Below are positions 13,629 to 64,000 of a stretch of 64,000 nucleotides of DNA, piece after piece. The notes below the pieces were generated by a model. It saw only the letters and a program-made list of their open reading frames with translations, ran no database searches and was not told where the DNA came from. The translations under genes were made by a program, and so were the position numbers. The first letter of the stretch is position 1. Each line of letters begins with the position of its first letter. Source of the DNA: Tilletia caries (Eukaryota; Basidiomycota; Exobasidiomycetes; Tilletiales; Tilletiaceae). The stretch lies in assembly GCA_032718865.1 (NCBI GenBank), contig JALUTQ010000003.1, forward strand, positions 1,518,001-1,582,000, given 5' to 3'.

Positions 13629-16482
13629 ATGCCGAGATTCAACCACGACCTGGGCGTGATGCCCGATTACTCGGACTCCAACGGTCGCTCCAAGTCGAAT
13701 GTGGAGAAGAAGCCAATCGTGCTTCCGACCAAGGTAGCGACACCTCGCGGATTCGCAGACGTCCTTCAGGTCGTGAGCAGCATCCTCTTCCGCCTTTTTG
13801 TCTACGTGTTTTTGCGATGGGTGCGTGTCTAGTTTCCCAAAGCGATCGGGTCGCGTCGTTCTGCGAAGGCTTCTGTGTCTACGCGACGCACGTGTGCGAA
13901 CAGTTCAGTGCTGATGACTTTTGATCTTCTGCCTTCTCTCAGATACCAGCTAGAGGCGCTGTTCCGATCATCCCCACCGTCTACGCGATTTATGTTCTCA
14001 GCTGGCTCTTGCACGACGTCCGCTTCCGGGCGCGTTTACGTTCGGTCGCCAAAGCAGCCCAATCGGCAGCTGGAGCGGAAAACCTGCAGCAACTCGCCGC
14101 AAATGTGGATGTCAAGCCCGAGGCGGGTGTACTGGAGGTGGATGCAGGCGCGGATGCCAGTGGAGCGCACAATCTCCTCCTCACGCCCGTCACAAGCTCT
14201 ACGGCGGTCGAGCACATAGCTGAGACGCCCACTCCTACCGACTTGGCGTACCAGTCTGATGCGTGGCCCAGCTTTACCGGTGCTATTTCCAGCTTGATCT
14301 TCGGTATCTCAACGCGCTCCCGCCGATGGAACTTCTGGTCTCTCGTCGCACACACCGTGCTCTTTGCCCTCTTCTTCGACAGCTTCATCTCGCCGTCCCT
14401 CTTCCCTTCGCACTACGAGTACAACCTGCGTTTCGCTCGCGTTGGAGCGCTCGGTCCGACCGATGCCAAGATCCACGTTCGGTACCCACACCCGCTGCCC
14501 ATCATGGACGGTCTGCAGGAGGACATTGTGAATGAGGCTGGCTTGGCCGCGTTGCGGGATAGCTCGATTCGGAATCCGGAACCGCTTCGAATCGTCTGGC
14601 GTGAGGCGTCGGATACGCCCGTCTACTCCAAGGCTCATGCAGGCGGATTGGGTTACGCGATTCCTCATGAGGTCAAGCGCTGGGAGCGGGGGCCTACCCT
14701 GCGTCTCACCGACGCGAGTGATTGGACGGCGACCGGTCACATCCAGAACCTGTGGCCTGCGACTCGATATGAATGGCGCCTCATGTTCAACCACAACTCG
14801 ACCTTCACTTCGTACCCAGAGTCGTCCCGCTTTTTCACTACCTTTCCCGACCCTCGCTTGGCATCCCACTCCCTAGGGTCCCAGAAGGCTGGCATTGAGG
14901 GGCGAAACCCTCTTGACGACCCCAACCACTTTACGTTTGCGACCTCGAGCTGTGTCAAGCCCGATTTCCCATACCACCCTGCTCAATTCATCGGCTGGAA
15001 CTGGCTGCTGCAGCTGGCGGGCATCGGCGTTCAGCCAGGTGGGATCACACAGAGAAACCGCATCCCTGGCTTCGATCTGATGGCCGACCGCCTGTTGAGT
15101 CGCCGTGGCGAAGAGGCGATCCGGTTCTTCCTCCAGCTTGGAGACTTCATCTACGCGGACGTACCGCGCGTCCGCAAACAGACGCGTGCGGCCTTCCGTC
15201 AGCTGTACCGGAACCTGTACGCGTCGAGCTCCTTCCGACGCGTGTACGAGCGTATCCCAATCATTGGTATTTGGGATGACCATGAGTTCAGGAACAACTG
15301 GTCGGGATTGGAAGAGGCGGTTAAAAATCCCGAGGGCTTGAACTCCTCTACCACGGCGTGGGACGAGTACATCGGTGTGGCCAACCCAGATCCATTGGAG
15401 CCTGGAGAAAAGTACTACACCTGTGAGTTTGTGAACACTGTTTCTCTTCAAAGAGCCCGAGGCTGACCTGGCCTTCGCTGTCATTCACAGTCCGATACGG
15501 CGACAGTGCCTTCTTTGTGCTTGACACTCGGAAGTTGCGCTCGCCGGCCTCGGAGGCAGACAATGAGGCCAAGTCGATGCTCGGCGAGTACCAAAAGGAC
15601 GCACTGATGCGCTGGCTGGGTGCGGTCAACCAAACTGCCACGTTTAAGTTTGTCGTCACCTCAGTGCCATTCAACAGTAAGTTTCTCCCAGTCTTCCCTC
15701 TTGACCATGCTCTGCAACTCGCCAATCTGACGACTCTTGTTCCTTTTTCGTAGCACTCTGGGGCGGTCCTCTTGACTGGGACGGTCAGCACGACACGTGG
15801 AGCGCGTACTTCAACGAACGACAACAGATCCTGGACGTGCTCCAGTACGTTCCCAACGTCATTGTGCTGAGTGGCGATCGTCACGAGTTTGCGTCTGTCG
15901 GCCTGCGTCAGACTGTGACCGAGTTCTCCACGTCACCCTTGAGCATGTTCTGTGAGTAGCCCCAGAAGTTGGATGTCAAGAGCGAGACCACAAAGCCAGG
16001 CGACTCACGCTACTATCTATTCGTTACTGCAACAGATCTGCCGGTCAGGACACTGGCTGAGGCGAATGCAAAGGGACCAGAAGGGGAGGAGAAGCTTTAC
16101 AAGTACATCCCAGATGGGAACCACAAGTGGACGGAGTTCGAAGTCGAGTGAGTGCCGGACCTTTCCCTCCGACACCATGCTCTTTTGACGCGCAACACTG
16201 ACCCTCGTCCGTTCCTGTATCAGCACCCGAGATGCGGCCAATCCGTTCGTCCATGCGACCGTAGTCGTCGATGGAAAAGAGGCGTGGAAGGTGACCGTCG
16301 TCGGTATCCCCGTCCGACCGATCCCAGCCCAGATCGGTGATCGGTTGTGTTCCGGCAAGGGCGGCACGAGCCGGATCAGCTGCCTGCTGGCGAGATACTT
16401 TGGCGTGGGACGGCCGGCTACGACGGGCGCGAATGTCGCTGATGATACCTTGTACAAGCCTTTGGGGGACGACGAATCATGA
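13629..16482 (+). CDS. Membrane-anchored PhoD-like metallophosphatase
   Basis: Predicted phosphodiesterase/phosphatase of the PhoD family (binuclear metal centre) anchored in a membrane. Six exons (13629-13820, 13943-15422, 15491-15676, 15754-15951, 16036-16147, 16224-16482) total 2427 nt, 808 residues. The N terminus has hydrophobic segments around residues 41-62 and 65-85. A third, about 195-217 (FWSLVAHTVLFALFFDSF), lies just before the large catalytic part. The catalytic region shows FATSSCVKPDF, then FFLQLGDFIYAD (about 459), IGIWDDHEFRNNW (about 505), LWGGPLDWDGQ and the late NVIVLSGDRHEFASVG. These are the metal-binding Asp, Asn and His positions of PhoD. Fungal relatives with this architecture are annotated as alkaline phosphatase D-like proteins; substrate and compartment cannot be told from sequence. 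All introns are canonical GT-AG. Confidence 0.85.
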
Positions 16483-30268: not shown

Positions 30269-33200
30269 ATGATTACTGACCCTTCGACCTCTCATCCTTC
30301 TGACCAGAAGGTCCCATCGTCGTCTTTTCTTTGGCAGGACTCCCTTCCATTTCCAGCTTTTAGAGGTGAATCGACCTTTTGGCCGCCCTCGATGGCAACT
30401 ATTCGGATCGGTGGCCCCGCTGTACGGGCATCATCCTTTGCATCCAGCTTATTACAGGAACAGAAGGGTGCTCAGGCTCCCGTCACCAAAATCCAGCTTC
30501 GGGACAAAAAGACCATCAACGTCAATGGTAAGTAGGCTTCTCGTGCCGTTCCTTAAGAAGGACATACCGAAGGATTTAGTTGCTGATTTTGATATTCCGC
30601 TTCCAGACCATATCTACCTCTCGGCCCCTTGGGCTCCCGGCGCAGGTGATCCCTACGTGATCGGCCGTGTGATGGAATTTGTCAATCCAGCCGCAAATAA
30701 TCGCCAAGGCCAACAGCCCGCAGCTCAACACGCTGGCCCGGTCAGGTTACAAGTCCGCGTCAATGTCTTTCTCCGAATGCGCGATATTTCCTCCCGCCCT
30801 TCTCACGATCCAAGACTGCTCGTCGCCACCATGCACTCCGACCTCTTCTCGACAGACAACATCCGGGGCAAGTGCGAAGTCAGACATCGTGATCTGATCG
30901 GCGACGGCAGTGCTCCCGAAATCAGCACCTGGAAGAAACGAGAAGATCACTTTTGGTACCACCAGCTCTACGATCGGTACATTCATCGTTTCTACGACGT
31001 GATCCTGACGGACAAGATCAAGAATGCGCCGCCGGATGTGCTGACTGTGCTGCGCGAAAGGTACTCCTTCGTCATTGCGGAGGTCGGCATGACACAGGAT
31101 TTGTGTGATGCCTTGCGCGGCTGCTTGGTGTGCCACAGATGGGCAGCGAGGTACGTTTTCGCTCTTTCGAAACATGATTCTGTCGGCAACACAGCCTCGC
31201 TCACCTACAGATCTCATTCACAATCCTGCAGCGCCCAGTCCGTTCGCTGCGACACGTGCAAAAGTTATTTCCATATGGCTTGCCTGACTCCGCCACTCAT
31301 CTCGAAGCCTGCGAAAGGATATTCGTGGACATGTGCACCCTGTGCCAAGGAACACCAGGAGAACGTTGACAAGGCGAAGAAAGGATCAGAAAGCGCATCA
31401 CTGTCGCGCTCTACTGTTTCGACCGGTCTGGCCGCCCGTGGCGTGGCGGCAACTATTGTCCGAGGCCGCGGAAGGGGAAGGGGTCGAGGCCGAGGTCGAG
31501 GTGGGAGTCGAATGGGGACACCCCTCCCTGATGGGCATGGTGGCGATGGCAGTCCTGGTCCGCAACGAACGGCTGACGAGGACGTCCGAGGCGTTCGCTG
31601 TTTCAACAATTGGCCATATCGATACTTTGGTCAACATACTGCCGCTACGGACGTGCTGGACCCTCACGACTCCATTTATCCAAGAGCGACGACCCGGCTT
31701 GGACCCAAATTTCAAGCTGTCGTTCCGACGTGGGAAGAGCAGATTGAGCTGGGGGTGGGAGCTAATGCCCTAGCCAAAGCCGCGGTCGCAATGGCGAAGC
31801 AGGCCAAACAGTTGCAAGAGATCGAAAATGGCGGTGTCGGCGGCAGTGGAAACTCCAGTAAGGAAGTCGGTTTGCTCCCAGCAGCACTCGGCTCGAGCAC
31901 CGCTGGCTTGTCTGGCACGGCCGAAAGCACAGGCACCGCTGTCGAAGGAGAAGTTACGCCCGCAGTATTGGAGCCGAACAAGACATTCAAGGGCGTGAAG
32001 AGGAAGCGAGACGATGATGGTCATGGCGGGACGGGTACTTCTACTCCCAGTAGTGGCGGTGCTGATAGCAACGAGCTGCCAGAGCGCGGTGGGGACGAGA
32101 CTATCACTCCGATCTTCTCAGCAGAAAGATTCGCACGACACAGTGCTGAGGAGGCCAACAGTGAGTCGACTCCAGTCTTGTTCACATCTTCCGCAAAGGA
32201 TCAGGATCATATGCTGACCTTGATACCCATCTGCATTTACAGTCGACCAATATTTACGACTGACGACATTCGCCCTGAACAGGATTCCACCGTACAACAT
32301 GAAACTATTGGCCACCTCCCTCGAAGTCTTCATGATGAAGAATGGCAACTGTCAAGCTGCGATGCAGGCAATGGCCGACAAGCCTCTGTCCGAGTTGAAC
32401 TATGTCGAATGGGAACCTAAGGAGATCAAGCGATTCGAAGCCGGCTTGACTGATTGGGGCGCGGATATGAATCAGCTCAAGAAATTACTCCCGGGCAAAA
32501 CGGTGGCCCAGATTGTACGGTTCTACTACAGCTGGAAGACGTGAGTATCAGCCTGCGTTCTCTTATCGCGATGCTCTTAATCAACGTGCACAGGCTCACA
32601 CACTTCTGAAAACACGCAGAGCACAACTACGAGATCAATGGAAAGCGGAACAAGCGGCCCAACATAGCAAGAACAAGGCCAAGCCGAAGGACCCCGAGTT
32701 CTACACTGCGACTTCGGCCGGAACGACTCGGGCAGTGTCTCCAACGCTCTCGGTCATGGAATTCCCCACCGCTGGTACCTCTGCCGTCTCACACGCGCAT
32801 CGGAGTTGCTTTATGTGCAACACGACGTCCAGCGCGCTGTGGTACAAGGGACCGGCGAGCTGGAGCAATCGTGCGCTCTGTGTTGGTTGTGGAGTTTATT
32901 GGCGGAAGTATGCTGCTGAGAGTACGCCGTCACTGGAGTTGATAGCGACGAACAAGAAACCTGCTGGTGAGTTTTCTTTTCGGCATTTTCATTGCTGCCA
33001 ATTTGCGTTGCGTGGGACTATATCTGAACTGATTCATTTGCGACTGCTTTCTATACCACAGTCGAGGAGAATGGCCTCGGTGTGCAACTTCCTGTTCTCT
33101 CGGTACGTGATTCTGCCAATGATTGTTGACCGGCCCCAAGAACTTACGCTGACTCGACGATGTGTTCTACTGCAGGCCAAGTCAAGAGAAATGCAGGCTC

Positions 33201-34879
33201 CGGCAAGACAGCCGGTTCCCAAACCTGAAGCGGTTCGCTGTGTGTTCTGCCGTCGGATTGAGCCGAAGCGCAAGCTTATAACGTGCATACAATGCTCGAT
33301 GACTGTGCATATTGGTACGTACATACGACTTGACTTGGAATCCTTGCTTTGGTTGTTGTGGCTGACGCGCATTTTGGACAATTCAGGCTGTCACGGTGTC
33401 GACGATCGAGAATTCAACCCTCATGCCTGGCTTTGCGAGCCATGTCTGAACGAAAAGATGCGTTTCGCCAATTTGGTCAGTCTTTTCCCCTCCTCACCCT
33501 TTCCGTCATTCGCAAGTCGCTGGAATCATTCGCTCACCTATCCATCACCACCTTGACTGTGTTCCATTGAACAGAATCCGGAGTGCGTGCTGTGCCCTGC
33601 ACGGGAAGCCGAAAGGCTCGCAGCAACCAACTCGAACCTATCTGCTGCCATGCGGAGGACAAAGAGCCAGATGCTGGTGGTCCGGGACGAGAAAGAAGAA
33701 GCGGCACCCCAGCCACTGACGGCTCTGGAGGCTGTCAAGCCTACGGAGTCGAACAACTGGGCGCACACCCTTTGTGCGGTTTGGATTCCTGAGATCGCGT
33801 TCAGTAATGCCACGTCTCTGAAGGATGTGGAAGGGGCGGGCTATCTTCCCACTTGGCGGTATCAAGCAGTGAGTGCAGAATCAAGCTACTTATCACGTTC
33901 TTTGGTCGGCTTGTGCTCACTCTCATTGGTACATTTCACAGGTCTGCGAGGTGTGTGGACTCAGGCAAGGTGCCTGCGTGACCTGTGCAGAAAGCACCTG
34001 CAAAAATACGTTCCACGTCTCATGCGCGTATGCGCGCAAGCCCGACTACACCTTTGCGTTTGAGATCCAACCGGTCAAGAGTTCGCGTCGCGATGCGGTC
34101 CCGACGGTCTCGTTCAAGGAGGAGACGGGCAACATGAGTGCCTTGATCTGGTGCAAGGATCATCGGGATCAAGCGAAGCTGAAGAAGATATACGAGCAAC
34201 ATGAGATTGATTCTCGCACTGGTTTGGTGAGTTCGGCGCTGTGTGGATGCGTTGGTATCCTAAAGCAAGTAAGCCGTGCTGATATCCCCCCTCGGATACC
34301 TTCTCACAGAGCGTGCTCCAGCTGTATGCACGCACGCACAAGACGATGCAAGCTATCGCCCCAACTGTAGCAGCGGCCAGTACTTCCGATGTGAGCTACG
34401 CCCTGCTTCGACGGGCGAAGAGGCTAGATGCCATCACCTCCTCCGGCACAGCGATCGGAGCGGCCACAGGTGTATCCTCAAGCCACCACCTCCACGCCCA
34501 TCGCTCCTCCAGCGGCTTCGGCCCCGCGATCGCTGGATTCGGGATGGGTGGGCTTCCGATCACGACGGCAGGCGGGCCGAGTGCGGTCGCGGCTGCTATG
34601 TTGGTGATGGAGGAGAACTCGAGGAAGAAGATCAAGTTGGGTCCACCGTATGAGTGTGTCCGATGCAAGACGCATTACTCCCCGGGTTGGTGGCCGCTTG
34701 TTGACGAGGACCGGCCGGAGGCTGAGGCTGAGGAGGAGGGGGAGGCGACGCAGACGGAGGAGACGATAGGTCGGGTGGGCTCGATGTCTGTGACGGGTGT
34801 GGCGATTGGGCCTCCCAACGGACGGAAGGTGTGCTGCAACCGGTGCCGGGCTCTCGTTCGTCCTGATTTACACCTATGA
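30269..34879 (+). CDS. snt2: Snt2-type chromatin regulator (BAH-PHD-ELM2-SANT-PHD-ePHD)
   Basis: Chromatin reader of the Snt2 family, which in yeasts partners histone deacetylase or demethylase (Rpd3L-like or Lid2) complexes. Eleven exons (30269-30527, 30607-31150, 31211-32160, 32243-32540, 32620-32966, 33062-33102, 33176-33314, 33387-33475, 33575-33868, 33942-34226, 34310-34879) total 3816 nt, 1271 residues. In order: BAH domain (about 87-250); PHD finger starting CLVC (about 259-315); an ELM2-like block with RYFGQHTAATDVLDPHDS (about 402-440); SANT helix set ending IVRFYYSWK (about 640-683); a GATA-like finger CFMC...CVGC (about 747-780); a second PHD starting CVFC (about 829); an extended PHD starting CVLCP and ending WCKDH (about 892-1060). 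A C-terminal Cys cluster (CVRC...CCNRC) completes it. An in-frame downstream ATG at 30392 is an alternative start. Domain order matches Snt2 closely. Confidence 0.92.
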
Positions 34880-53400: not shown

Positions 53401-54082
53401 TTCGCTGAGACAAAGTTACCCTTGGTGTGTTGAATCGCGACAGAGAGCTGGACAGCAGCTAGAACGGCGGCACGCTCACCTCGACCAGGTCAGGGCAATG
53501 GTCTCTCTCATCGATGCGGCGGACAGCGCCAGGCATGGAGGGTGCGAGCGAGGAAGAGATGGTGCTGACTGCTGATGAGATGAAGCGGGCGGTGGGCGGT
53601 GACCAGGTGGTGACCGGGTGGTGACGGTGATAATTTTGGAGAGTTATTGGAGAGGGGAAGTTCGGCAGTTGAAATTACATAGGTGGGCTTTGGACGGCGG
53701 GCATGAAGCGAGTGCCCCTCAGTTTGTAATGGGTTGTGTAATGTGTAATTTTGTGTTCGGTTTGTTGGCATTCCCAAAGCCAGCGCCGTTGATCCGCACA
53801 CCTCGCCGTCTGCAGTCTGGCTCTCGCACCTTGCACCTCATCTCGCTCGCTCGCCTGCCTGGACTGATTTACTGATCGGCGGCCGTCTTTCTTTCTTTCG
53901 TCCATCCAACGCACCACGCACCCACACTCACTTGGCCACCCGCCTCTCACACTCACTCACTCTCTCTCCCTCTCTCCCTCTCTCTGCTCTCCCCTTTGCT
54001 CTGGCTCTCCTCTCCCCTCCTCTCCCAACAGCGCTCTCCCTTAATCATACCGGACACCTCCCCCCACCAGGCAAAAGACGCA
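50458..54082. other. Gene-free repeat-bearing stretch and promoter of next gene
   Basis: No supported gene. Between about 50560 and 52040 imperfect CCAGGATCCTC / AGGAGCATCCTG-type motifs recur. CAGT tandem units lie near 52651-52668. The dispersed repeat copy B is at 52945-53118. A short inverted pair TACACCGC...GCGGTGTA spans 53324-53370. CT-rich sequence from about 53930 probably marks the promoter and leader of the gene at 54083. Confidence 0.4.
52945..53118 (-). repeat. Dispersed repeat, copy B
   Basis: Reverse-strand copy of 2980-3145. The shared core reads MAQAQADACARMGLSAS. Sequence beyond the core on the minus strand stays open to about 52654 and is Pro/Ser/His-rich, without recognised domains. 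The two copies differ enough to be old. Confidence 0.65.
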
Positions 54083-56683
54083 ATGAACCCCTCTCAGTCG
54101 GTCGGTTCGCTCGCTTCGTCCTCCCACGGCCAGAGCAGGAACTCCGGCGCATGGGGTCTCGGATACGGGATGCTCGCAGACGACGCTCACTCGGACGACG
54201 ACGACGACTCTGACGACGAGCGCATAAGGCCTGGTGCTGCCCCGGTTGCCTCCAAACAGCAGGCTCAGCCTCAACAACAGCAGCAGCAACAGCATCAACA
54301 CCAGCACCAAGGTTCATCAGCTGCCATCCAGGCCATCGCACAACAGCTCGGCAACGTCCTCGCCACCCCACAGCCACCCAACGAACACCGTGCATCCTGG
54401 GGCACTCGAGCCAAAGCCGTCGGCGATCGTCCACCAGACTCGGCCAGTCAGAACCCGCCCAGTCTCAAGCTGCTGGGCCTCAAGAGCGCAAAAGATATCG
54501 CAGCCACCGGTGGAGCCTCAGGATCAGCACACGGACACAACAACGCCGGATACCCATCCTCACCCGTATTTGCCCCCGTACCCTCGCCCACGACCGCCTA
54601 TCCAGGTCCTTCACAGCAGCAGCAACAGCAACAGGGCGTTCCTCTCCCACCTTCAGCACAGTCCCAGCAGTCCTCCCTGGCTGGTTCTCGGGACTCGCCT
54701 CTTCAAAAACCTCAACAGCATATGGGTATGGACCGATCTCCGTCGAATCCATACTTCCCACCTCAACCCGTGCCTCAGTCACAGCAGCAGCAACAGCAAC
54801 CTCAGCAACAGCAACAGCAACAGCAGATGCAAGGGCACGGCAGTGCATACGTCCCCATCACCCGTGGTACCGCGCCGCAATCACCATCACTCCTGAACTA
54901 CGGACAGCCATCAGCACCGTCGTGGAGCATGACTCCTGGCCCAGGATCGCCAGGCATTGCGAGTCGTCAGCTTAACATCCCTTCTGCCCAAGCTGCAGCC
55001 GGTGGAGGGATGATGAGGACGCCTTCGCCCGGTCCGGCCGGAATGGGCCAGGCCCGACCTGGCTATGCACCTGGACCTGGTCCTCAAGAGGGGCAGGGTC
55101 AGGGGCTGCCAGGTCAACAGCAGCAACAACAGCAGCAGCAGCAACAACAGCAACAACAGCAACAGCAGCAGCAACAACAACGTGGAATGAATGCAGGCGG
55201 TCCATCTCCAAGTCCTTTGGGTCCCGGTCGACCTCAGCCGCAACAGCAACAGCAGATGATGAATGCTGGACCACCACAGTCGCAGGGCCGGGCTATGCCT
55301 GCCTCGAACGGTATCGACCGATCGATGAGTCCCAATCCTGCTGCAATGGGACAGGGTGGACCTGCCTATGCACAAGGACAGGGACAAGGTCAGGGGCAGG
55401 TTGCGATGCCTCGGCCACCCCCAGCCTCTGCCGCCGGCTCGGCCCGGCAGAACCTCTTCCGACGCAGTTTGGCATTTGTGACCGGCTCCCCTCTGGCCAC
55501 CCCTGGCGGCGGTGTCGGCCCTGACGGACAGCAAATGCCGACTCCCCGCGGACAGCCGAACAACATGCCTCCCGCTTCTTCGAACGACGGCAAACAGAAG
55601 AGTCTCTTCCGCCGCTCGATGGCCTGGTTCGGTGCCGGTGGAGCGGCGAGCGGACCTTCTTCCTCCTCTGGTGGCCCCACCTCGCTCGCCCCGGGCGGTG
55701 GAGGTGGACCCGGCGGGAATGGTACGGGCCCCCGTCTTGTGACGATGGAAGGCGAGAAGGACGAAAAGCCGAGCGTCTCCCGGAAATCGGTCGTCCTCGG
55801 CGGAGGGGCGGAGGGCAACGAGTGGGACGTCGACGGCGACGGTGCGCATTTCTGGAAACGGTTCAGCTCGGCGCAACGGCATGCGAACATGGGTAAAGAC
55901 GATGCGTTGAACCTGTCGTCGGAGACGTGGTTGCGGAAGGTCCGGCGCGGGCATCGCAAGTTGAACTATATGGCTGCCATCTTTGGGCTGTGCATTATTG
56001 GGGCTATCATTGGTGTTGTGGTTTGGAGGGAGAGTGGGGATTCGAATGGGAACACTGGTGTGCCTGTCTCGGTGCAGAACGCTGACTTTGGGCCTTCGGA
56101 CGGTGGGATTGTTGGCGGGCCTAACAATGGGGTGACCTCGACCGTTGCTGGTTCTGGTGCTGGACGGGGAGCGGGTGCCGGTGCACAGCCGACAGCTGCC
56201 GCCGGAGCGGGTGCCGGTGCACAGCCGACAGCTGCCGCCGGTGCTGGAGCCGGTGCCGGTAGTGGCAGCGGCAGTGGCAGTGGTTCCGGGTACGACGATG
56301 GCTCCTATGCGGACCAGGTGGATGAGACTGCTTCGTCGACGAAGAAGAGCACGAAGAAGCACAAGCACCACCCCGACAAGGGCAACAAGAAGAACAACGA
56401 TCGTCGACGGCGTCATCACTACCAGCGAGAGCTGCAGCTGCGACGCGGGCGTCGGGCTGAGGAGCTGAGGAGTGGAGGTGGGCATGATCGGGCGTTGGAT
56501 CGGTTCGAAGAGGAGCGGCAGGAGGAGCGGGAGCGGGAGGAGGAGGTCGCGGTGGATGGCAAGGTTCTTGAGCTTCGGACGGCGGTTCCGTGGGGAGTGG
56601 AGAGGGAGTTGGAGCGGATCGGGCGTGAACAGGGGCGGGATCTTGTGGCTCGAGCTGGACCCACACCTGCTCCGTTTGCGTGA
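54083..56683 (+). CDS. Gln/Gly/Pro-rich single-pass membrane protein of unknown function
   Basis: A single exon of 2601 nt encodes 866 residues from the first ATG after a CT-rich leader. I recognise no enzyme domain. An acidic patch lies near residues 33-45. Residues 50-480 are low-complexity with several poly-Gln runs, the longest about 24. Two similar short motifs (NLFRRSLAF and SLFRRSMAW) occur near 455 and 512. A hydrophobic segment around 628-650 (MAAIFGLCIIGAIIGVVVW) follows a basic stretch, consistent with one transmembrane helix. Beyond it is an Ala/Gly repeat containing two GAQPTAAAGAGAG units, a Gly-Ser repeat, a Lys/His-rich stretch and an Arg/Glu-rich helix. The layout (disordered cytoplasmic N part, one helix, low-complexity outer part) recalls fungal wall-stress or polarity membrane proteins, but that is only a guess. 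The long antisense frame here is compositional. Confidence 0.68.
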   Translation: MNPSQSVGSLASSSHGQSRNSGAWGLGYGMLADDAHSDDDDDSDDERIRPGAAPVASKQQAQPQQQQQQQHQHQHQGSSAAIQAIAQQLGNVLATPQPPNEHRASWGTRAKAVGDRPPDSASQNPPSLKLLGLKSAKDIAATGGASGSAHGHNNAGYPSSPVFAPVPSPTTAYPGPSQQQQQQQGVPLPPSAQSQQSSLAGSRDSPLQKPQQHMGMDRSPSNPYFPPQPVPQSQQQQQQPQQQQQQQQMQGHGSAYVPITRGTAPQSPSLLNYGQPSAPSWSMTPGPGSPGIASRQLNIPSAQAAAGGGMMRTPSPGPAGMGQARPGYAPGPGPQEGQGQGLPGQQQQQQQQQQQQQQQQQQQQQQRGMNAGGPSPSPLGPGRPQPQQQQQMMNAGPPQSQGRAMPASNGIDRSMSPNPAAMGQGGPAYAQGQGQGQGQVAMPRPPPASAAGSARQNLFRRSLAFVTGSPLATPGGGVGPDGQQMPTPRGQPNNMPPASSNDGKQKSLFRRSMAWFGAGGAASGPSSSSGGPTSLAPGGGGGPGGNGTGPRLVTMEGEKDEKPSVSRKSVVLGGGAEGNEWDVDGDGAHFWKRFSSAQRHANMGKDDALNLSSETWLRKVRRGHRKLNYMAAIFGLCIIGAIIGVVVWRESGDSNGNTGVPVSVQNADFGPSDGGIVGGPNNGVTSTVAGSGAGRGAGAGAQPTAAAGAGAGAQPTAAAGAGAGAGSGSGSGSGSGYDDGSYADQVDETASSTKKSTKKHKHHPDKGNKKNNDRRRRHHYQRELQLRRGRRAEELRSGGGHDRALDRFEEERQEEREREEEVAVDGKVLELRTAVPWGVERELERIGREQGRDLVARAGPTPAPFA

Positions 56684-57817
56684 GCGCGCCCTCCTCGCGG
56701 AATCATCAACATCGACAAACGGCACACGCTTCCTTCAACCCCCACCAACTTTCGACTTCGAACCATCACCTCTTCTCACACTCGCGCTTTATTTTCCCCC
56801 CTTGGACCATATACACATCTCACCACACTCATTTGACTTCTTCGCACTTCGCCCGCCTCCCATCATCACACATACATTTGGTCTCCCAGGTTCATATCCT
56901 CACTCACTCCCACCCTTACCCACGGTCCTTACGGCATACCTTTTATTCCTACTCTCTCACACACTCTCTCTTCCTGGTCTCTGCTTTTTGCTCTATTGGC
57001 TCCCCTCTCCTCTTTTACTTTTTTCTCACTACCTCTCGCCTCTACCAATCAATGAACACTGCCTTGCTGGTGATACTCTGCGTTCCTCGTCTCCCCATCG
57101 GCACCCCTGTTTCTAGTTGAGTTTGGGGGAGGGTGCGTGCGTAATAAGATGAGCCATTCATTGAGCCCCTGTTCTACAGGCTGAGTTTCCGGAGGGTTGT
57201 GCAGATGAGAAGCGCGATAGGGGCCATGCTGGCGAATGGCGAATGGCGAATGGCGAATGGCGAATGGCGAATGGCTCGAGCGCGTGTTTCCCACGCCTCG
57301 CGCCCGCCTGTAACCTGTTCGTTCGTTCATCTCATAAAAAGATTCAAATGCCATGGGCCTCGAGTTCACTGGCCGACTCGGGGTCCGCCGCCTGCGGGTG
57401 ACAAGTTTGAAGTTACAGCCGCGCCCGCCATGCCCTCGTCCAATAATGTGTTCAAGTAGTGAGAGGGATAGGATGACGAGGATGAAGGCGACAACAGCAG
57501 GCAAGGCAGTTACCGCGTCATTCACGAATGAGCGCAACGGATGAACAGCCAGAAGGACACAGATGGTTGCGGCGTCGTCCGGAGTGTGCTGAGTGGGAAG
57601 TGGGAAAGCGAAGGAGGCAGGGCAGCAGGAATAAGCGGAGTTGGATAATGATGAAGGTGGCGTCTTTTCTCACTACTTCGCCCCGCCCCGGCGCTCGGTT
57701 CCTGAATCCTGGATTTAACGCACGCCAGCGGGCAGCGAAGCAGCGCGGGGGGATCGAGCGGAAGAACCCCAAGAAACGGCCCCGCCTCTCTCTGCTTTTA
57801 GAATAAGGCGCAGCGGG
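56684..57817. other. Intergenic, tandem repeat and promoter of bZIP gene
   Basis: Contains the 3' flank of the membrane-protein gene and a 7-bp tandem repeat (unit GCGAATG, about six copies, 57231-57275). No gene was found. Confidence 0.5.
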
Positions 57818-57824: not shown

Positions 57825-58101
57825 GAAGCGTGGAGAAGGCCGTCGACGTGGAAGACGTGGAAATCCCTACCTACCTACCTACCTACTCACTCAGCTTTCT
57901 CTCTCTTCTATCTACTTTTTTACTCTCTCTCTCGCTCTCTCACTCTCTCTTCACCACTTGTATTATTCTTTGACTACCTCACACTCCTCCACCGCTTCAG
58001 CTCGACATCCAACCACACAACAGTGAGTCTAGCCCTTATTAACCATATATGAACGCTGTGCTCATCCCTCCCTCCTGAACAGAGCTACCAAACGATCAGC
58101 C

Positions 58102-60962
58102 ATGACCACAATGACGGTCAACCCAGCCAGTATCAGCGCATCCGCTGCCACGGCCACGGCCACGGCCGCAGTCACAACCACAACCCCAGCCACAGCCACA
58201 CCCTCCCGAAAACGCAAGTCATCATCGGCTTCCTCAGCTTCCCCAACAGCAGACTCAGAGGAAACCCCACCAAAGCCCGCAAAGTCATCACGAACGAGAC
58301 CAATGGACCCAGAACGAATCGCAAGATTAGAAGCAAGGCAGGCCAGAAATCGACTCTCGGCTCAGAACTCGAGAGACAAGAAGAAGGCTCACCTCGCCTC
58401 GCTCGAAACGGTCACCGATCGGCTGGTGAGGGAGAACAACGAGTACCAGGCACGGCTGGCGGAGGAAACTGCGCAGCGAACGGCCATCGAAAGTCAGCTC
58501 CGTCAGACTCAGCTCCAACTCCACGGTCTTGAGTCTCTCGTCAAACAGCTCCTGACCTCGTCGTCCTCGTCCGCCATCCTTCGCGCGTCACATGCTGTTG
58601 CACCCACCTCGCTCACCGCGGCCGACAAGTCCTCTACTACTACCACTACTACTTCCGCCACTCCTACACCATCATTAATGGCTTCCTCTTCCACTGGAAA
58701 CTCACAGCTATCCGTAGCAGCGCCGACCTCTACTGCTCAACTGCAACCTAAGCGCGACGCAACCTCTTCATCATTGCCCTCGCACTCTCTCCCATCCACA
58801 ACTACCCTCCACCTAACCTCCTCCTCCCCTTCTACCTCTTCTACTCTTGCCCTCTCCTCCTCTGGCCCAACTTCCATCACATCGACAACAACCACCGAAA
58901 ACACAACGACAACATCCTCAACGACTGACAACGCCAGCACTCGCCTCCCTGCAGCGGAGGCGACCTGCCGCGATGAACCCGTCTCCGTTGGATTTCCCCA
59001 AAGTCTATCGAATCAACAACACCTCCACACCACCACATACCACTCGTCCTCCTCAACGTCGTCATCGTCCCCTAGCGCAGCGCTCCCCGCCGAGCAGCAG
59101 CGCAAGTCGCAATCTTGCGACGTCACCCCTGTCTCTAGCAGGCAGGCGGATGACGGGACATTGACATCGAGAGTCGAAGGCAGTGCTCAAGTGGTGCAGG
59201 TGCAGATTCAACAGACTTCTCTCGATCATCATCATGATCATGATCAAGGGAACACTCAATCCGACGACCAAGACGATCTCGCATCAACACAATCGCAGGC
59301 CCGGCAGCGGGTGCTGCTGTCTGTTCCCAACCGGGACAGACAGAGTCGTCATCAGTCACAAGTTTGTCATCGTCAACAACCGGTGGCCCGTCTGTCGACG
59401 GAAATGGAATCAAGCTCGAAGAAGGAGCACAAGGCTCATCAACAGAAGGAGCAAAAGGCGCAGCGGGAGGACTCAGTGGAACGAGTGGATCCGAGTCCGA
59501 GCGCAAACCACAGCATGACGCAGGCGTCACTCTTAGTAGCACCCCATCAACATCAGCAGCAGCAGACGTCACCCATGGCAGCAGCACATTCAGCAACGAG
59601 TTCCTCTCTGGAAAAGGACTCCCCATCATCAATGAAACCCTCTTCAAGTCACTCTTCAACAACAACAGTAGTAGTAGTAGCGCATCCCAGTCCAGCTCAG
59701 GTAGCGGACTTGTCGTCCCAGGCAGTCACGACAGCTCATCACCACTCCCGGCGATCGTCGTCCCGTCGTCATCGACGACGAACTGGTTCAACAACAGCAA
59801 CATCGTCGGAAGTAGCCCGAGCCCGACGACGGCCGCGCTCCTCGCTCGGCCGGACCTCCTCGTGTCTCTGCTTGCCGCCGCTGAACAAGGTCAACAGCAA
59901 CAGCAACAGCAAGAACAAAATCAGTCCCTGTCGCAAATATCAACAAGCCCGGGCATGCTGGCGTCGTCAGCTCTCGGAGCGGGTGCCCATCTTGTCCCTC
60001 TTGCCGGTGTCGGAGCCGACAACAACAACGCCAACGAAAGCGGGAACGGCGACAACAAAGTGGCGCTTGCGGGTCAGGTTCCCGGCTCAGATCCTCTCTT
60101 TTCTCTCGGACCTTTGGGAGGAGGAGGTCAGGTATCTCTCGCCGGGCTCGGGCTCGGTGCACTTGGGCTCTACGACGGCCACCTCCTCGGAGGCGGCTCG
60201 GCAGTAGGTCTGACCGAGCAACAACAACAACAAGAGCAACAGCAAAGGAACGGCGGTGAAAGTGGAAGTGGTGGGATGGAAGAGAACGGGAACGGGAACT
60301 CGTCGGCATTCGAGACGCTCTTAGCCTCCTTCGCCGGCTCCAACCAAGCAGGAGTCGAGTCTGGTTCGGAGATGCCGATGATGATGGGCGGCGACAGCAG
60401 TGGTCTGATGGTACCCGACGAGAGCGAGAGTGATTTCTTCTTCCAGCAGCTCCTGCTCTCTTCTGGTACCAACAGTGACTCGATCGTCGCAGCATCTTCG
60501 GAGGGGACCATCATCGCCGGAGGAGGACTCCAGGAGGAGCATCATCATCAGCAAGGAGCGCAGGAACACGACCACCAGCTCGTCGTCCCGGAGCTGGGCG
60601 TCCTCTCCCCTACTCCCGGATCCATCCATCCGGAGGACGACCTCCTCGCCCACGCCGACGGAAGCGTCATCTTCTCCTCATCCTCCTCGTCCTCCTCATC
60701 ATCGACCTACTCAGCCTCCACCATCGGCTCGCCGTCCTCCTTCGATGCGGCGCCTCTCGGCGGCGGAGCTGGGAACGATGAAGACTTGGATATGGACATG
60801 AACGACATGTTTGACTTTGAGCTCGATCTGGAGCTCGAGATGCCTTCTGCTGATGCTGCTCACTCGGCTGACACTAGTGTCGGCGGTGAGGAGGAGCAGG
60901 TGGCCTCTACGTCTACGTCGTCGGTCCAACAAGTCGGAGAGGCGATCTCGCTCGCGGCCTGA
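58102..60962 (+). CDS. HAC1/XBP1/CIB1-type bZIP factor, two overlapping frames
   Basis: Predicted transcription factor of the unfolded protein response. Frame 1 (58102-60207, 701 codons) has a bZIP domain: basic region about residues 83-97 (NRLSAQNSRDKKK), the N-x-x-A-Q-x-x-R-D-K-K form of HAC1/XBP1, then a leucine zipper to about 152. The rest of frame 1 is low-complexity. Frame 2 is open from 59244 to 60962. It is Ser/Gly/Gln-rich and ends with a strongly acidic region (DEDLDMDMNDMFDFELDLEL) typical of an activation domain. No GTGAGT-class donor links the frames. A perfect Ire1-type hairpin (58941-58963) lies in frame 1 after the zipper. Removal of an intron of length 2 modulo 3 would fuse bZIP to the acidic tail: 834 or 831 residues for the two candidate 3' sites. 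The basic stress-switch design is known from yeast, animals and U. maydis; its use here is inference. Confidence 0.75.
58941..58963 (+). promoter_or_regulatory. Ire1-type splice-site hairpin (5' site)
   Basis: TCGCCTCC (58941-58948) pairs perfectly with GGAGGCGA (58956-58963) around the 7-nt loop CTGCAGC. This is the consensus Ire1 substrate: C-N-G^C-N-G-N in a 7-nt loop on a stable stem. Cleavage is expected between 58951 and 58952, just downstream of the leucine zipper coding region. Confidence 0.75.
59295..59317 (+). promoter_or_regulatory. Candidate 3' Ire1 site region
   Basis: Here frame 2 starts to look coding. GCAG-G-CCCG and CGGG-(TG)-CTGC can pair into a bulged stem with GCAG at the apex. 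CAG^CGG (59307/59308) and CTG^CTG (59316/59317) would each give an intron of correct phase (356 or 365 nt from 58952). Neither shows the canonical 7-nt loop, so the exact 3' site is unresolved. Confidence 0.35.
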
Positions 60963-61763
60963 AATGATCCCCCAACCATTTTTCCAAATTGTTCCCCATC
61001 CAACCACCCACCATTCAGCCCATTACCCAGTCCCAAAAACTCTGTCCCGGTTTCTGTGCCTTGTTGTCCGTTGTCTCTGTTGTGCACTCGTCGTTACTTC
61101 CAAAAGACTCAATGAGCATACCAAATCATTTCCCATGCCACTCTGAACGCCTGCCTGACCATTCCCCAACCGTGCAGAGGAGATGCGAAGCTCAAAAGGG
61201 ACGAAAGAAGCCCAGCATAGTTCGGTGGACGTGATCGTGTGGTGTGACAGGCAGTACCAAAAGTTGATACCAGGATGAAGAGGACAGGGGGGCTGAGCCC
61301 AGCTTAGTATTAAGGGAGGGGGGAGGAAGAAACACAGAGGCAGAGGAGGACCCGCCCCCCACCAAAGAACAGTGAGGATAAAAATGAAGACGAGAGAGCG
61401 CGCGAGAGAAATAAGTGGAGGCCATGATAAGGAAAAAAGGGAACATGAAGGAAGGCAAAAGGGTGAGAGAAGAGGGGAGTTTTGAAGCTTCGATCGAAGT
61501 GAAGAGCCAAGTTGCAGGCAGATATGAATTGAGAGCTGATGAACGGCGGCGGCGTCGGCGGAAGATTGAGGGTGACGTGCATAGAGACCGTCTCGCTAGC
61601 CGTGAGATGGTAAGAGAAGAAGGAGAAAGAAGAGGATGGGACCGGTGCGGAGAAAGGTTTGTTGGCCATAATCATGCAGTGATGAGGGTGGGTGCAGAGA
61701 TCGAGAGGATCGAAGAAGAAGAGTTGAAAAGTGGGGGCGAAGGAAGTGAGAAAGCAGGTGCCC
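60963..61763. other. Convergent 3' flanks
   Basis: Lies between the bZIP stop (plus) and the RasGAP stop (minus). It holds purine-rich sequence with no gene and probably both 3' untranslated regions. Confidence 0.45.
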
Positions 61764-64000
61764 CTACGTCGTCCCAGCATCGATGAGTCCGACCAGCAAG
61801 GCCGTCATCAACTTGGAAAGCGTCAGACGTTTGTAGTCCTTCAACGGCGTAAAGTTGCCGCAGTCGAGCAAGCTCGCATAGCCGCTCTCCTCCAGGTAGG
61901 CGCTCGGACCGCCGCGCAGCGTGGTCTCCATCGCCTGGGCAGAGAAAATCGGTTCGGACACGGCGACTTGGGCAATAGCATTGACGGCATCTAGGATTGG
62001 TGCCACTTGAGAGTTGATCGTGACCTCGCGCATACCCGGTGCAAGCGAATCATATCTGAGGGTAAGGATCCAGTCAAAGTCTGTGAGCATACATAAAAGT
62101 CGCCATACTGCAAGTGAGGAGGATATTACTCACAAGATAGACACAATTGCGGGAACCATGCGTGCCGAGTCGGCCAAGAAGCAGTACAGAAGTACCTTCT
62201 CCTGGTCCGACTCTGCATGTTGCAGCAGCGACGCAGCAAGGGTGACGACGAGAAGAGCAATTTTGTTGTCGAATGCGTCCAGATAGTTGAAAAGGCCATT
62301 ATTGTCCGTCTGACGCGTCTCGATCGCAGCCTTGACCTCCGTCTCCTTCACACCGGCCATCCTCAGCAGCTCGCCAAAGGCTTCCGGTTGCAACGCAGTC
62401 GGAAGCAGACCGACAAAAAAGCCCAGCTGAGCTTCGGAAATTCGGCCGTCCGCGGAACGAGGGTTGCCCTCGTGGTCGGAGGCGGTGAATTTGAGCAGCA
62501 TCTGAAGAAGGTCAATCGTAGCTTCCTTCGTGGACGGGTGTCGCAGCCCCCGCACGAGGAGAGCAGCCATCCCGAACGAGAAGTTGATTTCGAAGTCCAC
62601 GCCGCTTTCGTCGTCCATACGCCGGGCAGCCTCACGGAAGTCAAAGCGAGCGTCAATCAAGAAGGCGACGAGGTCCGGCTCGCCTTCTTCGACGTTCAAG
62701 TTGCGTTCCGAGATCGTCGCAATCGTCGTCCGCAGCAAATCCACGCCCACTTTGAACAGCGCGACATGGCCATACTGAATCACAGCCACGCCCAACCAGA
62801 ACATTTGGGGCAGGTAGCGCGAACGAGGCGGAAGAATTGAAACGACCTTGCTGAGACACGCGACGATGCTGATGATCGGCGCGTCGTTTCCGTTGTTCGC
62901 CCACTCCGTAAGGCTGCTTCGGAGCGACACCAGTATCTGATAGAGTAGATCGTCGTCAATCTCGCCCTGCGCCAGGCAGCCGAGCAGGACGAAGGCCCGT
63001 GATTGGATGATCGGATTGTACTGGAAAGCAGTGCTGGTGACCAGGCTTGTGAGCCGTGCTCGCCAGCTGTTCGCCGTGTCGATGGTCGGCGCCGCCATCT
63101 CCGCGATGCTGTACATAAGCATTGCCAGCTTTTCGATGGCTTCGTTGTCTGGCGAGTCTCGGATCACGGAGGTGGACGCGTTGAAAGCATCGATTTCGCC
63201 GCTCGGCAGACCGAAGACCTTTGTCACATCGTCTTCTGCGAAACGTTGAAGGAAGGCCCGTAGCTTGCTCAGCCCTTCTGCGGGTGCTGGAATAACGTCG
63301 GAGGCCTTTTTAGACTCCCGCACATCCTCTGTGCAGAGGGAATGCATCAAATTGATCGCTGTACCGTAGATCGCAGCCCGGGTCGCGTCGACACCATTAC
63401 CCGAAAGAAGTAGAATGATGTGTAGGAGTTCCGGGAGGTAGAGCATGACTTCGAGGCGGTTGGTGAATGATAGCATCATGTTCATGCGGACCAGCGTTTC
63501 AATCTCTTTCCACGCCACGTGCTCGTGCAGGCTCGCTGTTGAGCCTGCTTGCGCGCTGTGTGCAGTCTTCGCCACGACCTGCAGGAATCATTTGCGTGAG
63601 TGACGAAATCAAAGAAGATGGAGAGCGGCGCCTAACACTCACTCTTCTCAGCCGGGCCAGAAGCTTGCCTCGCAGATTGATCGACCCAAAGGACACCATG
63701 GTACCCAGGATCGCTTCGAACTGCTCTGTGTGGATGCCGGAGTCCATGGCCGCCTCTGAGAAGATCTCGAGGAACAGTGGGATAAGATCGTCGAGCTTGC
63801 TCAGGTACGACCATACCACTCTTTGCATGACCGCGTACATCTGTAGCACATCCTAGGTCAGCATTCCAGTTCTTTTTCATGACAAATTCTTCGCTTGCTC
63901 ACCTCCGGCTGCTTCGTCGTGATGTTGATCAGATGCGTGAAAATCTCCTTGATCCGTCTTTGATGTTCAGCATGTTGCTCCCGAGACGCGTGAGCAAAGC
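61764..64000 (-). CDS. IRA/neurofibromin-type Ras GTPase-activating protein, C-terminal part
   Basis: Negative regulator of Ras that stimulates GTP hydrolysis. Only the C-terminal part is in the window; the 5' end continues beyond 64000. Four exons are seen: 63903-64000 (partial), 63643-63852, 62134-63578 and 61764-62055, all in frame. The diagnostic neurofibromin/IRA segment AFQYNPIIQSRAFVLLG, followed by CLAQGEIDDDLLYQILVSLR, lies in the large exon. Upstream are helical repeats such as LPELLHIILLLSG and FEAILGTMVSFGSINLRGK. The protein ends after GFFVGLLPT..., LRYDSLAPGM and a short helical tail. The GAP catalytic domain (Arg finger) and Sec14-PH module would lie to the right of the window. 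Introns are 50-80 nt, GT-AG. Confidence 0.85.

What the first reader, a model, noticed from the sequence alone, without database searches (positions are those of the whole stretch)
58941..60962. Ire1-type unconventional splicing predicted in a HAC1/XBP1-like gene
Seen: a bZIP frame (58102-60207) overlaps a second frame open from 59244 to 60962 that ends in an acidic activation-like region. A perfect 8-bp stem with loop CTG^CAGC sits at 58941-58963, after the zipper. No conventional donor/acceptor pair joins the frames. Known: HAC1, XBP1, HXL1 and CIB1 mRNAs are cut by Ire1 at such loops, changing the reading frame by removing an intron of length 2 modulo 3. Inferred: the same switch here. Stops in the second frame at 58974 and 59241 force an intron of at least about 290 nt, much longer than the short (about 55-65 nt) introns I know from basidiomycetes.
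Basis: partly seen in the sequence, partly recalled or inferred. Interest (0 to 1): 0.9.

Follow-up and report, generated by a model that had tools for sequence, protein, structure and literature searches.

The report
Long stress-spliced intron in fungal gene
A fungal stress-response gene appears to be switched on by a special RNA cut outside the normal splicing machinery, as in smut fungi, but the piece to be removed is about five times longer than in those relatives and looks as if it may itself be read as protein before it is cut out.

Summary
The gene is a Cib1-type (HAC1/XBP1-like) bZIP gene. The 8-bp hairpin with loop CTG^CAGC (58941-58963) encodes RLPAAEATC, found letter for letter at the 5' site of six unspliced relatives from unnamed contigs. 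I add the missing 3' site: CGG^CAGCGGGTG, cut after 59304, agreeing at 10 of 12 positions with the relatives' 3' site as decoded from two overlapping frames. The predicted intron, 58952-59304, is 353 nt (2 modulo 3) and joins the bZIP frame to the second frame, giving an 835-aa protein with an acidic end. The same method gives 65 nt for six smut-type relatives, the published U. maydis value, and 62 and 56 nt in others. IRE1 and tRNA ligase are in the genome; no GT-AG donor fits. The intron stays open and coding-like in the bZIP frame. Weak points: no RNA evidence; 3' hairpin only moderately better than chance; codon usage still favours the bZIP frame for about 200 nt after 59304; second-frame C-terminus unlike smut Cib1 C-termini; organism unnamed. 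Long Ire1 introns are known in budding yeasts; I found none reported in basidiomycetes.

The parts
58023..58082 (+). Putative conventional GT-AG intron in the 5' UTR (GTGAGT...AACAG, 60 nt), just before the ATG
   Evidence: Sequence; not tested by RNA
58102..58951 (+). Exon 1: ATG to the predicted Ire1 5' cut; encodes the bZIP and linker
58285..58563 (+). bZIP region; 40-47% identical to Cib1-type proteins over most of its length; only match found in the genome at E<=0.01
   Evidence: Pfam bZIP_1 E=1.3e-4 but below the curated cut-off
58941..58963 (+). 5' Ire1 hairpin: 8 perfect bp, loop CTG^CAGC (58949-58955), cut predicted after 58951; encodes RLPAAEA
58952..59304 (+). Predicted Ire1 intron, 353 nt (2 mod 3); open and coding-like in the bZIP frame
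59295..59317 (+). 3' Ire1 hairpin with CGG^CAGCGGGTG (59302-59313), cut predicted after 59304
59305..60962 (+). Exon 2, second frame: acidic C-terminus, stop 60960-60962; spliced protein 835 aa
59305..60207 (+). Overlap in which the bZIP frame also stays open: C-terminus of the 701-aa unspliced product

Best explanation
The gene is a Cib1-type, HAC1/XBP1-like UPR transcription factor. Under ER stress Ire1 would cut its mRNA after 58951 and after 59304, in two CNG^CAGC hairpin loops, and tRNA ligase would join the ends, removing 353 nt. That moves translation from the bZIP frame into the second frame (junction ...TRLPAAGAAV...) and gives an 835-aa activator with an acidic C-terminus. Without stress the mRNA would encode a 701-aa protein that reads through the intron. 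Shown here: the sites, the phase, the frames, the relatives' matching sites, and genes for the two enzymes. Inferred: cutting, ligation, stress control, and the function of both products.
For: 1) Searches with the bZIP region gave 21 proteins at E<=10: 14 with a species name, 7 unnamed; the named genera or species looked up (7) are all Ustilaginales, the rest are Sporisorium and Ustilago species. 2) RLPAAEATC at the hairpin is exact in 6 of the 9 relatives read in the unspliced frame; the other three have RLPAAEAIC (P0003) or RLPAAETKS (P0002, P0023). 3) The relatives' 3' site, decoded from the pair P0018/P0017, is CAR^CAGCGGATG; the window has CGG^CAGCGGGTG at 59302, 10 of 12 positions alike. 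CNGCAGCGGRTG occurs 103 times on the two strands of the 38.1-Mb genome (reversed control pattern 77) and once in the window (0.16 expected), so about 0.0014 per 1000 nt of one strand. 4) The intron is 2 mod 3 here (353) and in the 9 relatives read (65, 62, 56); 65 equals the published U. maydis value (PMC8071499). 5) 5' hairpin statistics; 3' hairpin: 15 of 2000 synonymous recodings fold as well; both persist in 451- and 651-nt folds (5' pair probabilities 0.85-0.94; 3' 0.43-0.93). 6) Codon usage: second frame +24.3 in 59305-60207 and +56.7 in 60208-60959, bZIP frame -0.9 and -48.1. 7) IRE1 RNase at C3:892315-892784, all 16 PDB sequences listed for it are IRE1; tRNA ligase on C19. 8) No GTRAGT-like donor.
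Against: No transcript data. 3' hairpin: only 2 bp with the canonical 7-nt loop register; the minimum-energy form has a 4-nt loop holding the cut, z -1.3, 23 of 200 shuffles as good. The second-frame protein is not detectably similar to smut Cib1 C-termini: score 15.2, reached by 56 of 150 and 72 of 150 shuffles; the bZIP frame of the same stretch scores the same (15.2) and the reversed sequence higher (20.8). Other in-phase CNG^CNG sites lie downstream: 59307, 59316, 59463, 59556, 59559, 59562. In 180-nt codon-usage windows centred 59332 to 59512 the bZIP frame still scores above the second frame (4 of 4), and the second frame leads in every window only from 59572 on, so codon usage does not place the switch at 59304. 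The genome-wide pattern was relaxed (N, R) to include the window's letters. The decoded 3' site rests on one protein pair of unnamed source.
Confidence: 0.8

Rival explanations
1. Ire1 cuts the 5' hairpin, but the 3' cut is at another in-phase CNG^CNG site further down (introns of 356 to 611 nt).
For: Six other in-phase CNGCNGN sites between 59305 and 59600. Codon usage favours the bZIP frame in the windows centred 59332-59512 and the second frame only from 59572 on.
Against: Only 59304 has the relatives' CAGCGG(A/G)TG continuation; with the overlapping 59307 it has the most stable hairpin (-14.8, against -11.1 at 59316 and -3.1 or weaker at the other four). Three 12-mers between 58952 and 60962 reach 10 of 12 to the relatives' site: 59302; 59095, ruled out by later stops of the second frame; and 59557, in a CAG run with almost no hairpin.
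Confidence: 0.11
2. The frame change is an assembly indel or the gene is decaying; no splicing switch is needed at this spot.
For: Codon usage is compatible with a frame change anywhere from about 59300 to 59690; no read data available.
Against: An indel would not create a matching 3' site in phase beside a 5' site shared with relatives of Cib1, whose mRNA is Ire1-spliced; second frame open by chance in 0 of 5000 shuffles.
Confidence: 0.05
3. A spliceosomal GT-AG intron joins the frames.
For: The gene does seem to have a GT-AG intron in its 5' UTR (58023-58082), and five published smut gene models skip the site as if joined by another junction (P0009, P0012, P0013, P0016, P0021).
Against: 0 of 47 GTs in 58560-59699 match GTRAGT at 5 of 6; no CTRAY branch-like motif inside 58952-59304.
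Confidence: 0.03

Closest known systems
Ustilago maydis Cib1 and Ustilaginales relatives (Ire1-spliced bZIP)
   Same: bZIP homology, RLPAAEATC at the 5' cut, CNG^CAGCGG(A/G)TG at the 3' cut, intron 2 mod 3, unspliced frame open for 120-143 codons past the site in six relatives
   Different: Intron 353 nt instead of 65 nt (62 in one relative, 56 in an unnamed pair); C-terminus not detectably similar. U. maydis Cib1 itself was not among the fetched proteins
Cryptococcus neoformans HXL1
   Same: Basidiomycete bZIP with CAG intron borders in stem-loops; unspliced form suggested to be translated (PMC3154848 and PMC6116095, passages)
   Different: 56-nt intron; not among the hits of my protein searches
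Saccharomyces cerevisiae and Kluyveromyces lactis HAC1 (long introns, 252 and 297 nt)
   Same: Long Ire1 intron with hairpins at its borders (PMC6116095, passages)
   Different: There the intron pairs with the 5' UTR to block translation, and in K. lactis a stop lies in the intron. Here the frame stays open and pairing with the assumed 5' UTR is not convincing
Candida parapsilosis HAC1 (626 nt; up to 848 nt in relatives)
   Same: Expansion of an Ire1 intron within one lineage, hairpins kept (PMC6222058, first part and passages)
   Different: Saccharomycotina; independent of this case by descent (inference)

Membership tests
HAC1/XBP1/Cib1-type Ire1-spliced bZIP gene | bZIP related to Cib1 | tested here: met
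   40-47% identity over most of the region for 20 of 21 hits (P0022: 64% over half). Pfam bZIP_1 22.4 bits, under its 27.6 cut-off
HAC1/XBP1/Cib1-type Ire1-spliced bZIP gene | 5' CNG^CNGN in a 7-nt hairpin loop downstream of the zipper | tested here: met
HAC1/XBP1/Cib1-type Ire1-spliced bZIP gene | 3' CNG^CNGN motif in phase for the frame change | tested here: met
   59302-59308, cut after 59304, 353 nt
HAC1/XBP1/Cib1-type Ire1-spliced bZIP gene | 3' motif in a stable hairpin | tested here: inconclusive
   -14.8 kcal/mol, 23 of 200 shuffles as good; 15 of 2000 synonymous recodings as good; loop register not canonical
HAC1/XBP1/Cib1-type Ire1-spliced bZIP gene | Removal changes the frame into a second open frame with an acidic C-terminus | tested here: met
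Cib1 orthologue (Ustilaginales) | C-terminus similar in sequence to spliced Cib1 (an aid to orthology, not a defining feature of the mechanism) | tested here: inconclusive
   No similarity above shuffles or above the wrong frame; shallow profile (Neff 2) and low-complexity stretches give the test little power
HAC1/XBP1/Cib1-type Ire1-spliced bZIP gene | IRE1 and tRNA ligase in the same organism | tested here: met
   IRE1; ligase
HAC1/XBP1/Cib1-type Ire1-spliced bZIP gene | ER-stress-dependent removal of the intron | not testable with these tools
   No RNA data held
S. cerevisiae-type long-intron HAC1 with translational block | Intron complementary to the 5' UTR | tested here: inconclusive
   Best 9 bp Watson-Crick, 9 or more in 32 of 300 shuffles; 13 with G-U, 13 or more in 4 of 300; duplex energy matched by 149 of 200 random window segments; 5' UTR start assumed
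S. cerevisiae-type long-intron HAC1 with translational block | Unspliced frame ends inside the intron (K. lactis: PMC6116095; S. cerevisiae: recalled) | tested here: not met
   Open to 60205

The most novel reading that the evidence does not exclude
A basidiomycete lineage has independently lengthened its Ire1 intron more than fivefold by in-frame growth between two conserved cut sites, without the yeast-type translational block. The roughly 117 intron codons are translated and used in an unspliced 701-aa regulator, and about 900 nt downstream are read in two frames, so that one mRNA makes two functional proteins according to ER stress.
Probability: 0.35. Interest if true: 0.65.

Novelty: new variant of a known kind. 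Interest (0 to 1): 0.5.

Why it matters
The Ire1 introns of Basidiomycota that I found described are 56-65 nt; long ones are described in budding yeasts, where in S. cerevisiae and K. lactis the intron pairs with the 5' UTR (PMC6116095). A 353-nt intron that stays open and looks coding would separate intron length from that block and would give a natural test of whether the unspliced protein has a job. It also warns annotation pipelines: the activator's second half is out of frame with its DNA-binding half, and some smut gene models already seem to mis-join it.

Tried and rejected
Rfam scan of 58000-61000: four matches at E<=1, each far under its gathering score, none an Ire1-intron family. 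Homology of the second frame to smut Cib1 C-termini: none above shuffles (one search had E 4.9 against P0001 and E 0.34 against P0002). An allele or paralogue of the second frame or of the bZIP in the genome: only the window's own copy at E<=0.01, among the candidates scored. Intron-5' UTR pairing: not convincing. Tree of 23 bZIP rows: window and P0002/P0023 are very long branches and the window falls in an unresolved fork with P0003, so it does not place the organism. The third protein search, with P0002, found only P0002 and its near-twin P0023. In one search the 365-nt figure for P0006 is a chance PAAE elsewhere in that protein and was dropped; P0006 carries the spliced form PAAD. In one search the line 'CNGCNG kept 1.0' is true by construction for Pro-Ala-Ala and is no evidence.

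Papers: PMC6222058 read in its first part (of five) and passages; PMC8071499, PMC3154848, PMC6116095, PMC4836707, PMC6918084, PMC5024300, PMC4488935, PMC4101180, PMC10781871 and PMC13149111 in passages only. Heimel et al. 2013 and Hooks and Griffiths-Jones 2011 were not read. That no longer basidiomycete Ire1 intron is in print rests on searches of an open-licence library, seen as listings and passages.

For the codon-usage point I lowered the main confidence from 0.82 to 0.80 and raised the first rival from 0.10 to 0.11.

Full report
What was claimed. A bZIP frame (58102-60207) overlaps a second open frame (59244-60962), an 8-bp stem with loop CTG^CAGC lies at 58941-58963, and no conventional splice pair joins the frames. 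All of this is in the sequence at those coordinates. The hairpin is the only CNGCNGN loop in the window with a perfect 8-bp stem (1 of 481 sites on the + strand, 0 of 481 on the - strand). A stem of 8 or more arose in 1 of 2000 shuffles of the gene and in 0.045% of 20,000 synonymous recodings of its peptide. The second frame stays open for 1716 nt, which 0 of 5000 shuffles did in any frame.

What the gene is. Two protein searches with the window's bZIP region gave Cib1-type proteins: 21 at E<=10 in the second, 14 of them with a species name (Testicularia cyperi best, 47% over the bZIP; Sporisorium, Ustilago, Moesziomyces, Kalmanozyma, Pseudozyma, Melanopsichium) and 7 unnamed. The seven named species that I looked up are all Ustilaginales. 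A search of the own genome finds one such gene at E<=0.01. Pfam's bZIP_1 matches at E = 1.3e-4 but under its curated cut-off.

The 5' site. Of 23 proteins fetched, 9 are read through the site in the unspliced frame (P0002, P0003, P0004, P0007, P0014, P0015, P0018, P0020, P0023; P0003 is a gene model that changes frame after the 3' site), 8 carry the spliced form PAAD (P0001, P0005, P0006, P0008, P0010, P0011, P0017, P0022), and 6 lack the site in their gene model (P0009, P0012, P0013, P0016, P0019, P0021). Six of the 9, all from unnamed contigs, have RLPAAEATC exactly as the window; P0003 has RLPAAEAIC and the near-identical P0002 and P0023 have RLPAAETKS. The window's hairpin is therefore most likely the same site that Ire1 cuts in Cib1.

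The 3' site. In the relatives the unspliced frame reads SQQRM (SQQRV in P0002/P0023) where the spliced frame reads PAAD. Solving both frames of the pair P0018/P0017 gives CAR^CAGCGGATGCCC with an intron of 65 nt, the length published for U. maydis cib1 (PMC8071499, passage). The window has CGG^CAGCGGGTG at 59302-59313 with unspliced reading ARQRV: 10 of 12 positions agree. The relaxed pattern CNGCAGCGGRTG occurs 103 times on the two strands of the 38.1-Mb genome (reversed control 77) and once in the window (0.16 expected). The cut after 59304 gives an intron of 353 nt, 2 modulo 3, begins exon 2 61 nt after the last stop of the second frame, and yields an 835-aa protein with junction TRLPAAGAAV. 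The relatives read 65 nt (six: P0003, P0007, P0014, P0015, P0018, P0020), 62 nt (P0004) and 56 nt (P0002 and P0023), all 2 modulo 3.

Structure. 5' hairpin -17.2 kcal/mol, 2 of 200 shuffles as good. 3' hairpin -14.8 kcal/mol, 23 of 200 shuffles as good, 15 of 2000 synonymous recodings as good. The canonical 7-nt register of the 3' site has only 2 bp; the predicted form closes to a 4-nt loop that still holds the cut. In 451- and 651-nt folds the 5' pairs have probability 0.85-0.94 and the 3' pairs 0.43-0.93.

Frames. Codon usage was trained on eight long open frames of the window; the true frame wins in 8 of 8 left-out tests. The bZIP frame leads in exon 1 (+9.6, against -5.5 and -55.2), weakly, the second frame being slightly ahead in its first windows. 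It also leads inside the intron (+11.0, against -36.5 and -11.6). The second frame leads over 59305-60207 as a whole (+24.3 against -0.9) and strongly after that (+56.7 against -48.1). In the 180-nt windows centred 59332 to 59512, however, the bZIP frame is still ahead (4 of 4), and the second frame leads from 59572 on. So codon usage does not fix the switch at 59304; it fits either two-frame reading just after the cut or a later switch. The intron's bZIP-frame score was reached by 2 of 2000 shuffles and its lead by 25 of 2000; staying open through the intron was reached by 238 of 2000 and is weak evidence.

Machinery. IRE1 RNase on contig C3 at 892315-892784, minus strand, in two matches, probably two exons; all 16 PDB sequences listed for the first are IRE1. 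tRNA ligase on C19, all 5 PDB sequences listed being tRNA ligase.

Rivals. Spliceosomal joining lacks a donor: 0 of 47 GTs in 58560-59699 reach 5 of 6 to GTRAGT. An assembly indel would not explain a matching 3' site in phase. Six other in-phase CNG^CNG sites exist downstream and are the main uncertainty about the exact length.

Against the reading. No RNA was seen. The second-frame protein is not similar to smut Cib1 C-termini beyond shuffles; the bZIP frame of the same stretch scores the same, and the reversed sequence higher.

Compared with what is known. Ire1 introns are 56 nt in HXL1 (PMC3154848, passages), 65 nt in U. maydis and 252 nt in budding yeast (PMC8071499, passage), 297 nt in K. 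lactis (PMC6116095, passages), 379 nt in C. glabrata, and 19 to 848 nt in the CTG-Ser1 clade (PMC6222058). In S. cerevisiae and K. lactis a pairing of intron and 5' UTR attenuates translation (PMC6116095). Here pairing with the assumed 5' UTR is not convincing: 9 bp reached by 32 of 300 shuffles, 13 with G-U by 4 of 300, duplex energy matched by 149 of 200 random segments. Together with the open, coding-like intron this suggests, but does not show, that the unspliced mRNA is translated, as suggested for HXL1 (PMC6116095).

Verdict. A Cib1-type Ire1 switch with a predicted 353-nt intron: a known mechanism, in a variant longer than any basidiomycete case that I found in print.

Noticed in passing
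P0009, P0012, P0013, P0016, P0021: Five smut gene models go from the linker (NEG/NED) straight to the second frame (FDG, FES, FVG) without the RLPAAD segment, as if an annotation program had put another intron over the Ire1 intron; probably mis-annotated Cib1 proteins.
   Followed up: partly
P0002 and P0023: An unnamed relative with a 56-nt Ire1 intron whose unspliced frame itself contains an acidic stretch (DQDIDMDSLLMQMHADWQMESDLLDLNWSDW), so the unspliced form there may also activate; not explained.
   Followed up: no
57230-57275: Perfect 7-nt tandem repeat (TGGCGAA, 6.6 copies) about 830 nt upstream of the ATG.
   Followed up: no
53876-56683: 935-aa open frame with long polyQ runs and a possible membrane segment (by eye), no Pfam match, upstream of the bZIP gene.
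   Followed up: no
62130-63587, minus strand: Open frame with a match to MOR2-PAG1_C, cell morphogenesis C-terminal, slightly under its cut-off, facing the bZIP gene's 3' end.
   Followed up: no
13925-15466; 30273-32420; 32471-33556: PhoD-like phosphatase; BAH plus PHD protein; GATA zinc finger.
   Followed up: no
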